The position numbers and the translations under genes are program-made. From Planctomycetota bacterium (GTDB lineage Bacteria; Planctomycetota; B15-G4), in assembly GCA_003644265.1 (NCBI GenBank), contig QNBX01000059.1, positions 1-24,246 on the forward strand: a DNA stretch of 24,246 bases, written 5' to 3'. Positions 319 through 12,192 of this stretch are shown here, piece after piece; the stretch's first letter is position 1; every line of letters begins with the position of its first letter. The notes under the pieces are model-generated. The model worked only from the letters and a program-made list of their open reading frames with translations. It was not told where the DNA came from and searched no databases.

Positions 319-2487
319 GTGGCTGAACTCAGACCCTATCCCATGGGCGCGCTGGTGACGCGCATGCTGCGCGAGCTGGACGCGCACGGGTCGATCTTCG
401 ATCTGCCTCGCAAGCACATCTTCGGCGCGGGCGTGCGTGCGCGTGCCGAAGGCGTACGTGCGCACGGTGAAGCCGAGCGCGAGGGCGACGCTGGCGACAG
501 CGCGCACGCCGCGCCCGATCTGTCCGTGCGCTTCCACGATCGCGTGGCGTCCACGCCGTTGGGGCCCGCCGCGGGACCCCAGTCGCAGATGGCGCAGAAC
601 ATCGTCCTGAGCTGGCTGGGCGGCTGCCGCATCATGGAGCTGAAGACGGTCCAGATCATGGACGAGCTCGACATCCCGCGGCCCTGCATCGACATGGCCA
701 CCGTGGGCTACAACGTCGAGTGGTCGCAGGAGTTGAAGCTCGAGCAGTCGCTGGACGAGTACGTCAAGGGCGCCATGCTGGTGGAGATGCTGCGCGCCGG
801 CGGACAGCTGCCCGGCGCGGCGGCGGCGCCTCACGTCGTGTACGACATGAGCGTGGGCTACGACCTCGACGGCATCCGCTCCGAGCGCGTCAGCGCCTTC
901 ATCAACGGCATGACGGACTGCAGCGCGGTGGTCGATCGCCTGCGCGCGCAGATCCCGGCGGAGTTCGCTCACCTGCGCGACCTGGACTTCCCGACGGAGC
1001 TCTCGCGCACGCTGACCCTGAGCACGTTCCACGGCTGCCCGCCCGACGAGATCGAGCGCATCATCGACTACCTGCTGCGCGAGCACGGGCTGCACTGCAT
1101 CATCAAGCTCAACCCCACGCTGCTGGGGCCCGAGCGCGCGCGGGAGCTGCTGCACGACAGGCTGGGATACGACGACGTGAGCATCCCGGACGAGGCCTTC
1201 GTCAAGGACGCCAGCTGGGATCAGGCCCAGGGCTTCACCGAGCGCCTGGCAGCCACCGCCGCGGAGCTGGGCCAGGGCTTCGGCGTCAAGTTCTCCAACA
1301 CGCTGATCGTCAAGAACCACCGCGACGTGTTCCCGCCCGCCGAGGAGGCCATGTACCTGTCGGGCACGCCGCTGCACGTGCTGGCCATGGACCTGGTGCG
1401 CCGCTTCCGCCAGCGCTTCGGCGACAGCATCCCGATCTCGTTCGCCGCCGGCATCGACCGTCACAACTTCGCCGACGCGGTGAGCCTCGGGTTGGTGCCC
1501 GTCACCGTCTGCAGCGACCTGCTCAAGCCCGGCGGCTACGCGCGCGCCCACACCTACCTGGACGCGCTGTCGGCGGCCATGAGCGCGGTGGGCGCGGAGC
1601 ACGTGCCGGACTGGATCCTGCGCGCGCACGGACAGGGGCACGCGGCGCTGGCACAACTCGGATTGGCCGGCGACGACCCGGCCCTGGCCGCCTGCTGCGC
1701 CGCGCTCGACGGCGGCGGCGACCTGCTGGCGGCCGCGGGCCCCGAGCTGCACGCGCGCTGGGTCTCGCAGGCCGCGCTGCTCAACACGGAGGTCGTGGTG
1801 ACCGCGCTGGCCGACGACCCGCGCTACCACCGCGACCAGAACGCCAAGCCGCCCCGCAAGATCGGCTCGATGCTCGAGCTGTTCGACTGCATCACCTGCG
1901 ACAAGTGCGTGCCGGTCTGCCCCAACGACGCCAACTTCACGCTGAGCATGCCGGCCGTCGATCTGCCCATCGTCAAGCTGACACGGACCGCGAGCGGCTG
2001 GAGCGCGCGTGAGGACGGCCGGCTGGTGCTGGCCAAGAAGCACCAGCTCGCCAACTTCGCCGACTTCTGTAACGAGTGCGGCAACTGCGACGCCTTCTGC
2101 CCGGAGGACGGCGGCCCCTACCTGATCAAGCCGCGCTTCTTCGGCACGCGCGAAGACTTCGACGCCTTCAGCGAGCGCGACGGGTTCCTGGCTGAGCGCC
2201 ACGACGGGCAGCTCGTGCTGCACGGACGCTTCAGCGGGCGCAGCTACCGGCTCTCACGCGAAGGCCAGGGCTGGCGCTACGCGGGCGACGGCTTCGACAT
2301 CGTGATCGACCTCGCCCTCGACGCCGGGTCTGCGAGCGCAGACCAGATCGCGTCCCATGTCACGGGCGAGGCCGATGGCGAGGTCGATCTGGCCTACCTG
2401 CGCATCCTCATGCTGATCCGCGAGAGCGCGTACGGCGAGGGCGCGCTCAACTACGCCGCGCTGATGAGCGCCGATCAGCTCGTGTAG
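319..2487 (+). CDS. ygfK: YgfK-like FMN/iron-sulfur oxidoreductase (dihydropyrimidine dehydrogenase-like)
   Basis: The protein is 722 aa. The GTG start is supported by GGGAG at 305-309. The N-terminal part (about 1-450) reads as a dihydroorotate/dihydropyrimidine dehydrogenase-type TIM barrel, with segments such as FHGCPPDE, KLNPTLLG and KFSNTLIVKNH. A two-cluster ferredoxin module follows: C524, C527, C530, C534-P and C584, C587, C590, C594-P, each spaced C-x2-C-x2-C-x3-C. This matches the YgfK family (called a putative selenate reductase subunit), which clusters with ssnA and xdhD in E. coli and is linked to anaerobic purine breakdown. E. coli YgfK is about 1,030 aa; here no GxGxxG dinucleotide-binding region is visible, so the FAD/NAD(P) part seems missing and electrons must come from a partner. 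A cytosolic reductase of an oxidised ring is inferred. The 3' end overlaps the convergent hydrolase gene by 13 bp. Confidence 0.82.
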   Translation: MAELRPYPMGALVTRMLRELDAHGSIFDLPRKHIFGAGVRARAEGVRAHGEAEREGDAGDSAHAAPDLSVRFHDRVASTPLGPAAGPQSQMAQNIVLSWLGGCRIMELKTVQIMDELDIPRPCIDMATVGYNVEWSQELKLEQSLDEYVKGAMLVEMLRAGGQLPGAAAAPHVVYDMSVGYDLDGIRSERVSAFINGMTDCSAVVDRLRAQIPAEFAHLRDLDFPTELSRTLTLSTFHGCPPDEIERIIDYLLREHGLHCIIKLNPTLLGPERARELLHDRLGYDDVSIPDEAFVKDASWDQAQGFTERLAATAAELGQGFGVKFSNTLIVKNHRDVFPPAEEAMYLSGTPLHVLAMDLVRRFRQRFGDSIPISFAAGIDRHNFADAVSLGLVPVTVCSDLLKPGGYARAHTYLDALSAAMSAVGAEHVPDWILRAHGQGHAALAQLGLAGDDPALAACCAALDGGGDLLAAAGPELHARWVSQAALLNTEVVVTALADDPRYHRDQNAKPPRKIGSMLELFDCITCDKCVPVCPNDANFTLSMPAVDLPIVKLTRTASGWSAREDGRLVLAKKHQLANFADFCNECGNCDAFCPEDGGPYLIKPRFFGTREDFDAFSERDGFLAERHDGQLVLHGRFSGRSYRLSREGQGWRYAGDGFDIVIDLALDAGSASADQIASHVTGEADGEVDLAYLRILMLIRESAYGEGALNYAALMSADQLV

Positions 2488-11319: not shown

Positions 11320-12192
11320 GTGTCACGAATCGTCAAGGGCGGACTGATCCAGTGCGCCAACCCCATCAACGATGAGACCACCCCCATCGCCGAGGTGCAG
11401 GCCGCGGCGTACGAGAAGCACCTGCCCTTGATCGAGCAGGCCGGCGAGGCGGGAGTGCAGATCCTGTGCCTGCAGGAGATCTTCAACGGCCCCTACTTCT
11501 GCCCCAGCCAGGACCCGCGCTGGCACGACGGCGCCGAGTCCGTGCCCGGCCCCACCGTGGAAGCCCTCGCGCCCTACGCAGCCAAGTACCAGATGGTGAT
11601 GATCGTGCCGGTCTACGAGCGCGAGCTGGCGGGCGTCTACTACAACACCGCCGCCGTGATCGACGCCGACGGCACCTACCTGGGCAAGTACCGCAAGAAC
11701 CACATCCCCCACACGAGCGGCTTCTGGGAGAAGTTCTTCTTCAAGCCGGGCAACCTGGGCTACCCCGTATTCGACACGGCCTACGCCAAGGTCGGCGTCT
11801 ACATCTGCTACGACCGGCACTTCCCGGAGGGCGCGCGGTTGCTCGGTCTGAACGGCGCCGAGATCGTGTTCAACCCGTCGGCGACGGTGGCGAGCCACTC
11901 CCAGTACCTGTGGAAGCTGGAGCAGCCGGCGCACGCCGTGGCCAACGGCTTCTTCATGGGCTGCAACAACCGCGTGGGCACCGAGCCACCCTGGAACATC
12001 GGGCGCTTCTACGGCAACAGCTACTTCGTCGACCCGCGCGGCGTCATCCTGGCCGAGGCCAGCGAGGACAAGGACGAGCTGGTGGTGGCCGACATGGACC
12101 TCGACCTGATCGAGGAGGTGCGCCGCACCTGGCAGTTCTATCGCGACCGCCGGCCCGAGACCTACGACGACATGTGCGAGCTGCTGCCCTGA
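11320..12192 (+). CDS. Carbon-nitrogen hydrolase, beta-ureidopropionase type (copy B)
   Basis: A 290-aa nitrilase-superfamily protein with triad E53 (LQEIFNGPYF), K126 (GKYRKNHIP) and C163 (VYICYDRHF). The GTG start at 11320 has AGGAG at 11308-11312, seven bases away. The sequence is closer than copy A to canonical beta-ureidopropionase / N-carbamoyl-beta-alanine amidohydrolase (EIFNGPYF, HIPHTSGFWEKFFFKPGN). It would release NH3 and CO2 from a ureido acid in the cytosol. It is transcribed divergently from xdhD and ends 25 bp before the convergent sulfatase-fold gene. With copy A the cluster has two enzymes of the same chemistry, as would suit a substrate with two ureido groups or two successive carbamoyl removals. 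That is inference. Confidence 0.92.
   Translation: MSRIVKGGLIQCANPINDETTPIAEVQAAAYEKHLPLIEQAGEAGVQILCLQEIFNGPYFCPSQDPRWHDGAESVPGPTVEALAPYAAKYQMVMIVPVYERELAGVYYNTAAVIDADGTYLGKYRKNHIPHTSGFWEKFFFKPGNLGYPVFDTAYAKVGVYICYDRHFPEGARLLGLNGAEIVFNPSATVASHSQYLWKLEQPAHAVANGFFMGCNNRVGTEPPWNIGRFYGNSYFVDPRGVILAEASEDKDELVVADMDLDLIEEVRRTWQFYRDRRPETYDDMCELLP

What the first reader, a model, noticed from the sequence alone, without database searches (positions are those of the whole stretch)
319..12192. A planctomycete-type catabolic island combining YgfK, SsnA and XdhD homologues with two ureidopropionases and two PLP enzymes
Seen: homologues of three E. coli purine/selenium-locus genes lie within 11 kb, with two different ureidopropionase-type hydrolases and two fold-type II PLP enzymes, but no YgeX, YgeW, YgeY or HyuA homologue. 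Known (from memory): the E. coli-type gene set has been tied to anaerobic purine/urate breakdown ending in 2,3-diaminopropionate, which YgeX (a fold-type II PLP lyase) splits. Inference: here two nitrilase-family enzymes could remove two ureido groups in turn, and one or both PLP enzymes could replace YgeX, giving an alternative version of the pathway.
Basis: partly seen in the sequence, partly recalled or inferred. Interest (0 to 1): 0.7.

Follow-up and report, generated by a model that had tools for sequence, protein, structure and literature searches.

The report
Variant reductive urate-breakdown gene cluster
These genes look like a little-noticed environmental version of the recently solved bacterial pathway that breaks down uric acid by reduction, in which two vitamin-B6 enzymes and different urea-removing enzymes stand where the gut-bacterial enzymes normally are.

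Summary
The genes are real: YgfK-, SsnA- and XdhD-like genes lie with two CN-hydrolases and two fold-type II PLP genes, although PLP2 is frameshifted here. The order recurs in other genomes; the window's phylum is unresolved. Most likely it is a variant of the reductive urate (yanthine) pathway solved in E. coli in 2025. PLP2 (long, CysK fold) tracks YgfK: 23 of 25 YgfK genomes in a 294-genome sample and 17 of 17 in a 199-genome sample have it; the two without it carry canonical YgeX. PLP1 or its relative P1b (both ThrC-like) accompanies PLP2 in 31 of 33 loci. Four PLP2 genomes with a diaminopropionate lyase lack PLP1/P1b; three others have both. So PLP1/P1b probably fills YgeX's slot, imperfectly, and PLP2 is an unexplained constant. 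Ureido removal is modular: YgeY+YgeW 18 loci, HyuC+hydrolase A 16, HyuC+UacY 4. A+B without an M20 partner occurs only in the window and one relative, and B may be a pyrimidine enzyme. HyuA is absent from the window; the nearest relative has one, in a pyrimidine-type locus. No reaction was assayed. SsnA and YgfK here score below the curated cut-offs of their families.

The parts
319..2487 (+). short YgfK-like Fe-S flavoprotein (722 aa), matching E. coli YgfK residues 5-416 and 904-1000
   Evidence: TIGR03315 404 bits, below its 835 cut-off; BLAST to E. coli YgfK 36% and 31% over these two stretches
2475..3410 (-). CN-hydrolase A (311 aa), beta-ureidopropionase/carbamoylase type; proposed 2-ureido hydrolase
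   Evidence: PF00795 139 bits; best solved relative beta-ureidopropionase 8pt4, 113 bits; GELFSGPY / RKTHIP / ICYDRHF motifs
3531..5072 (-). PLP1 (513 aa): ThrC-like fold-type II PLP enzyme with an N-terminal Cys stretch that I read as zinc-ribbon-like
   Evidence: PF00291; alignment of relatives A3; start at 5072 overlaps the PLP2 stop
5069..6594 (-). PLP2: long CysK-fold PLP enzyme, frameshifted in this contig near 6211-6213
   Evidence: PF00291 in the C-terminal piece; pieces in two frames; intact in most relatives
7371..8417 (-). SsnA-like amidohydrolase (348 aa), lacking the N-terminal ~56 residues of E. coli SsnA
   Evidence: TIGR03314 259 bits (cut-off 455.5), NF005540 280 bits (cut-off 444); 39% to E. 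coli SsnA 57-324
8414..11044 (-). XdhD-like molybdo-enzyme, 2Fe-2S and Mo-cofactor domains fused, no FAD domain found (876 aa)
   Evidence: TIGR03311 923 bits, above cut-off 830; Pfam domains
11320..12192 (+). CN-hydrolase B, beta-ureidopropionase (PydC) type, divergent from the XdhD-like gene
   Evidence: PF00795 211 bits; best solved relatives 2vhh (CG3027) 208 bits and beta-ureidopropionases 8pt4, 6ftq 190 bits; same place in L007

Best explanation
The island is a variant of the reductive urate (yanthine) degradation pathway. Inferred steps: the XdhD-like enzyme reduces urate to 2,8-dioxopurine; the short YgfK, without the part that I take to be the FAD/NAD(P)H domain and so probably fed by ferredoxin or another donor, dearomatises it; SsnA opens the ring; a hydantoinase encoded elsewhere gives 2,3-diureidopropionate. 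CN-hydrolase A removes the 2-ureido group, the role of YgeW/UacY. An M20 HyuC elsewhere, or hydrolase B here, removes the 3-ureido group, the role of YgeY. The PLP1-PLP2 pair then consumes 2,3-diaminopropionate: PLP1 most likely does the elimination that YgeX does, and PLP2 does a companion reaction such as handling the other enantiomer or a beta-replacement. Shown here: gene content, co-occurrence, operon order, and exchange of PLP1/P1b with a diaminopropionate lyase in some genomes. Every enzyme reaction is inferred.
For: 40 of 80 YgfK loci also show SsnA and XdhD; 26 of 80 show YgfK+SsnA+XdhD+PLP2. PLP1 or P1b and PLP2 are on one strand in 31 of 31 loci with both, gaps 173 bases or less except L068, whose PLP2 is broken. 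L074 carries HyuA, YgfK, YgeY, YgeW, PLP1, PLP2, SsnA and XdhD together, and its genome G025 has no strong YgeX. PLP2 against YgfK: 23 of 25 and 17 of 17 YgfK genomes in two phylum samples of 294 and 199 (Fisher 5e-28 and 7e-16, not corrected for kinship). The two exceptions, G236 and G269, are the two YgfK genomes of that sample with YgeX, over its cut-off. Four PLP2 genomes with a diaminopropionate lyase above the NF006058 cut-off (G413, G459, G474, G468) have no PLP1/P1b (three no match at E 1e-30, one 112 bits). UacT urate-permease homologues (51-55% identity to E. coli) lie in L050, L054 and L132. M20+partner pairing. The E. coli chemistry is from PMC12507026 (abstract and sections 5, 7, 8, 9, 13 read).
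Against: G019 and G406 have both a diaminopropionate lyase and PLP1/P1b, and G364 has a truncated lyase match plus P1b. In the second phylum sample PLP2 and YgeX-like genes do not exclude each other (6 of 33 PLP2 genomes have both). 16 of 199 genomes there, and 4 of 294 in the first, have PLP2 without a YgfK match. G425 and G440 have PLP2 but only weak PLP1-like matches and no lyase match. HyuA is not in the window, and the HyuA of relative G001 sits in a pyrimidine-type locus. PLP2 is broken in the window. Oxygen relations of the organism are unknown.
Confidence: 0.66

Rival explanations
1. Same purine pathway, but the PLP pair makes L-serine: PLP1, ThrC-like, adds water at the beta carbon of aminoacrylate from diaminopropionate, and a separate serine dehydratase gives pyruvate. 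PLP2 supplies the right enantiomer or the first elimination.
Against: All five loci come from records titled Ramlibacter, Sterolibacterium or Telmatospirillum; the window has no such gene; no reaction was tested.
Confidence: 0.15
2. Hydrolase B belongs to reductive pyrimidine breakdown (PydC) and is a neighbour by chance; only hydrolase A is part of the urate pathway, with HyuC elsewhere in the genome. This can hold together with the best explanation.
For: Relative G001 has a paralogue of B (83% DNA identity) in a locus with DHO_dh (PydA-type), dihydropyrimidinase, class-III aminotransferase and aldehyde dehydrogenase genes. All 18 hydrolase-A loci that show any M20 gene show HyuC.
Against: B lies beside the XdhD-like gene in both the window and L007, and in L007's genome this is a second copy.
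Confidence: 0.45
3. The cluster degrades another N-heterocycle (a hydantoin or pyrimidine derivative), not urate.
For: The nearest solved relatives of both CN-hydrolases and of HyuC are named for carbamoyl amino acids, carbamoylputrescine or beta-ureidopropionate; no urate assay is known to me for these organisms.
Against: A molybdo-enzyme of the TIGR03311 family, with UacT-like permeases and YgeW/YgeY in homologous clusters.
Confidence: 0.12

Closest known systems
E. coli reductive uric acid cluster (xdhD-ygfM, ygfK, ssnA, hyuA, ygeW, ygeY, ygeX), PMC12507026
   Same: XdhD-like, YgfK-like and SsnA-like enzymes; homologous clusters in relatives also carry HyuA, YgeW and YgeY
   Different: no YgeX; PLP1+PLP2 instead; short YgfK and no YgfM in the window; CN-hydrolases for ureido removal; XdhD fits TIGR03311
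Clostridioides difficile variant (UacX, UacY), PMC12507026
   Same: XdhD without YgfM, a dearomatising enzyme without FAD domain, hydrolytic 2-ureido cleavage (proposed here)
   Different: YgfK-type rather than PydA-type (UacX) enzyme; CN-hydrolase A rather than UacY in the window; PLP1+PLP2 rather than YgeX
Reductive pyrimidine (Pyd) pathway
   Same: reductive dearomatisation, amidohydrolase ring opening, beta-ureidopropionase (hydrolase B is of this type)
   Different: a molybdo-enzyme and SsnA are present; the PLP pair has no Pyd counterpart that I know of

Membership tests
Reductive urate (yanthine) pathway | XdhD/XdhA-type molybdo-enzyme | tested here: met
   TIGR03311 923 bits, over cut-off
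Reductive urate (yanthine) pathway | YgfK (IPR017701, which I equate from memory with TIGR03315) or UacX dearomatising reductase | tested here: inconclusive
   TIGR03315 match at 404 bits, below the 835 cut-off; short form
Reductive urate (yanthine) pathway | SsnA (IPR017700, which I equate from memory with TIGR03314) | tested here: inconclusive
   259 bits, below the 455.5 cut-off; N-terminal part missing
Reductive urate (yanthine) pathway | HyuA hydantoinase | tested here: inconclusive
   none in the window; HyuA-family match in 40 of 40 chosen relatives' genomes; the window's genome is not held
Reductive urate (yanthine) pathway | YgeX diaminopropionate ammonia-lyase | tested here: not met
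   none in the window; over the TIGR03528 cut-off in 0 of 40 relatives, one strong match
Reductive urate (yanthine) pathway | urate reduced to 2,8-dioxopurine | not testable with these tools
   needs an assay
Threonine synthase (PLP1) | passes a curated threonine synthase cut-off | tested here: not met
   NF006050 89 bits against 303; TIGR00260 24 against 167
Cysteine synthase (PLP2) | passes a curated cysteine synthase cut-off | tested here: not met
Diaminopropionate ammonia-lyase (PLP1) | passes NF006058 (276 bits) | tested here: not met
   20 bits for the L074 relative; window PLP1 has no listed match
Beta-ureidopropionase / CN-hydrolase (A and B) | Glu-Lys-Cys triad motifs | tested here: met
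   motifs found in both proteins; triad residues named from memory

The most novel reading that the evidence does not exclude
PLP2 is a new, near-obligatory enzyme of many environmental reductive-urate pathways, and PLP1-PLP2 is a two-enzyme end module that turns diaminopropionate into L-serine or resolves its enantiomers, so that purine carbon enters biosynthesis rather than only pyruvate.
Probability: 0.25. Interest if true: 0.75.

Novelty: new variant of a known kind. Interest (0 to 1): 0.62.

Why it matters
The reductive urate pathway has been described from gut and other anaerobes. PLP2-bearing clusters or genomes lie here in records titled Planctomycetota, Acidobacteriota, Myxococcota, Gemmatimonadales, SAR324, Elusimicrobia and several Pseudomonadota; only the last two phyla are named in the published SsnA census (PMC12507026 section 9). 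Window SsnA and YgfK score below the NCBIfam cut-offs that I equate with the InterPro families used there, so that census would probably miss forms like these, and it marked YgeX by PF00291, which PLP1 and PLP2 also match. Large protein groups that sources name 'threonine synthase' and 'cysteine synthase' would get a catabolic role, testable with few assays.

Tried and rejected
Strict mutual exclusion of PLP2 and YgeX: in the first phylum sample 0 of 27 PLP2 genomes have YgeX at E 1e-40, but chance alone would give that (Fisher p 1.0); in the second sample 6 of 33 have both. It was dropped. What remains is that the two PLP2-less YgfK genomes carry YgeX. The cut of about 320 bits for calling PLP1/P1b present was chosen by me after seeing the scores, and the Fisher value 0.005 ([[4,2],[2,25]]) rests on it. 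By that cut PLP1/P1b is called in 27 of 33 PLP2 genomes of the second sample (25 of the 31, plus G010 and G026, scored with another profile) and in 19 of the 24 PLP2 genomes of the first sample that held (G059 shows two pieces beside PLP2; G058, G197, G203 and G253 are unclear). The distribution of PLP1 over the whole samples was not measured.

Full report
What is there. The window (24,246 bases, 70% GC) holds, in order: a YgfK-like gene (+, 319-2487); on the minus strand CN-hydrolase A (2475-3410), PLP1 (3531-5072), PLP2 (5069-6594, in two frames), an SsnA-like gene (7371-8417) and an XdhD-like gene (8414-11044); then CN-hydrolase B on the plus strand (11320-12192). Stop and start codons of neighbouring minus-strand genes overlap at PLP2/PLP1 and XdhD/SsnA, as in an operon. 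PLP2 does not read through: the frames meet near 6211-6213. Most relatives are intact, so this is a sequencing error or a recent break; I cannot tell which.

What each protein is. YgfK scores 404 bits to TIGR03315 against a cut-off of 835. It aligns to E. coli YgfK 5-416 and 904-1000, so the middle part is missing; I infer that this is the FAD/NAD(P)H part described in PMC12507026 section 5. SsnA scores 259 against 455.5 and begins at E. coli residue ~57. XdhD passes TIGR03311 (923 against 830). Hydrolases A and B carry the three motif regions of the Glu-Lys-Cys triad; the nearest solved chain is a beta-ureidopropionase for A (113 bits) and 2vhh (208 bits) followed by beta-ureidopropionases for B. 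PLP1 is nearest to threonine synthase and PLP2 to cysteine synthase by profile and by predicted fold (mean pLDDT 91.5 and 92.2, models of the L007 relatives). Neither passes a curated threonine or cysteine synthase cut-off in the window (PLP2 by its C-terminal piece). BLAST finds no match of PLP1 or PLP2 to E. coli YgeX at E 1e-3.

Conservation. Of these 80 (many cut by contig ends), XdhD was seen in 44, SsnA in 42, PLP2 in 33, PLP1 in 27, P1b in 9, HyuC in 26, hydrolase A in 23, YgeW in 22, YgeY in 21, HyuA in 9, UacY in 5, serine dehydratase in 5, hydrolase B in 3 (two of them at 28-29% identity only) and YgeX in 1. P1b is a second ThrC-like family that never shares a locus with PLP1 among these 80. 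PLP2 is without PLP1/P1b in two loci, L038 and L061, where it lies at the end of the stretch held. L007 has the window's order gene for gene, including B. No YgeX, YgeW, YgeY, HyuA, HyuC or UacY match lies in the window.

Whole-genome tests. In 40 chosen genomes: PLP2 in 40 of 40; a HyuA-family match at E 1e-25 in 40 of 40 (several are weak, dihydropyrimidinase-like); YgeX over its cut-off in none, with one strong match, G019, which also has PLP1 and PLP2. In the phylum sample around G001 (294 genomes; Planctomycetota, inferred because genomes of loci so titled, G006 and G030, are in the sample): YgfK 25, PLP2 27, both 23, YgeX 7, PLP2 with YgeX 0. The two YgfK genomes without PLP2 have YgeX over the cut-off and E. 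coli-like neighbours. In the sample around G010 (199 genomes; Acidobacteriota by the same kind of inference): YgfK 17, PLP2 33, both 17; YgeX-like at E 1e-40 in 22, none over the TIGR03528 cut-off, 6 of them with PLP2. Fisher values are not corrected for kinship.

Which PLP enzyme replaces YgeX? From the neighbourhoods and a PLP1/P1b search of 67 genomes: G413, G459, G474 and G468 keep PLP2 and a lyase that passes NF006058 (384-432 bits against 276) but have no PLP1/P1b. G406 and G019 have all three (their lyases also pass NF006058, at 310 and 501 bits), and G364 has P1b with a truncated lyase match. None of the seven YgeX genomes of the first sample reaches 320 bits for PLP1/P1b. So PLP1/P1b trades places with YgeX, imperfectly, while PLP2 stays outside the canonical YgeX type. 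PLP2 also often lies next to SsnA or HyuA. G459 has XdhD, YgfK, SsnA, HyuA, YgeW, YgeY, a lyase and PLP2, so PLP2 seems to do something beyond the E. coli set.

Ureido removal. Over the 80 loci, M20 and partner genes fall into pairs: YgeY+YgeW 18, HyuC+A 16, HyuC+UacY 4, HyuC+B-like 2, all four of HyuC, A, YgeY and YgeW 2; A alone 4, HyuC alone 2, YgeW alone 2, YgeY alone 1, UacY alone 1, A+B with no M20 1 (L007), none 27. A HyuC member passes TIGR01879 (412 against 204). PMC12507026 gives YgeW/UacY the 2-ureido group and YgeY the 3-ureido group, whereas PMC12990295 notes that another study assigns the 3-ureido group to YgeW; by position A takes the YgeW/UacY role and HyuC the YgeY role (inference). 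In the window B would take HyuC's role. Relative G001 has a paralogue of B in a locus with PydA-type, dihydropyrimidinase, aminotransferase and aldehyde dehydrogenase genes, so B, and the HyuA of G001, may be pyrimidine enzymes.

Relation to print. The pathway and its known variants (UacX, UacY, an F420-type reductase) are in PMC12507026. Its main text has no occurrence of nitrilase, ureidopropionase, carbamoylase, Planctomyc- or Acidobacter-, and it marks YgeX by PF00291. Nine searches listed no paper that I recognised as describing this variant; several listings were cut. Verdict: a new variant of a known pathway, with function inferred and not shown.

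Noticed in passing
window 6797-7291, + strand: Small secreted-looking protein ending in CSTCHDADH, cytochrome c'-like; Pfam 17.5 bits, below the 26.5 cut-off. No such ending was seen in the same gap of L007.
   Followed up: partly
window 5069-6594: PLP2 is split over two frames near 6211-6213, whereas most relatives have it intact.
   Followed up: partly
window 12218-24052: Downstream genes look unrelated: sulfatase (12218-14077 -), protoglobin (15132-15716 -), three FG-GAP repeat proteins (17084-18271 +, 18294-20018 -, 20248-22377 -) and a BD-FAE esterase (23069-24052 -).
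   Followed up: no
L112 (relative G001): Pyrimidine-breakdown-like locus with a paralogue of hydrolase B, 83% identical in DNA to the L007 copy.
   Followed up: yes
L056 and L079: A urate oxidase N-terminal domain gene (PF06181 in L056; homologue in L079) lies near YgfK, hinting at oxidative and reductive routes side by side.
   Followed up: no
L045, L050, L054, L055, L058: Serine dehydratase in the same locus as YgfK and HyuA.
   Followed up: partly
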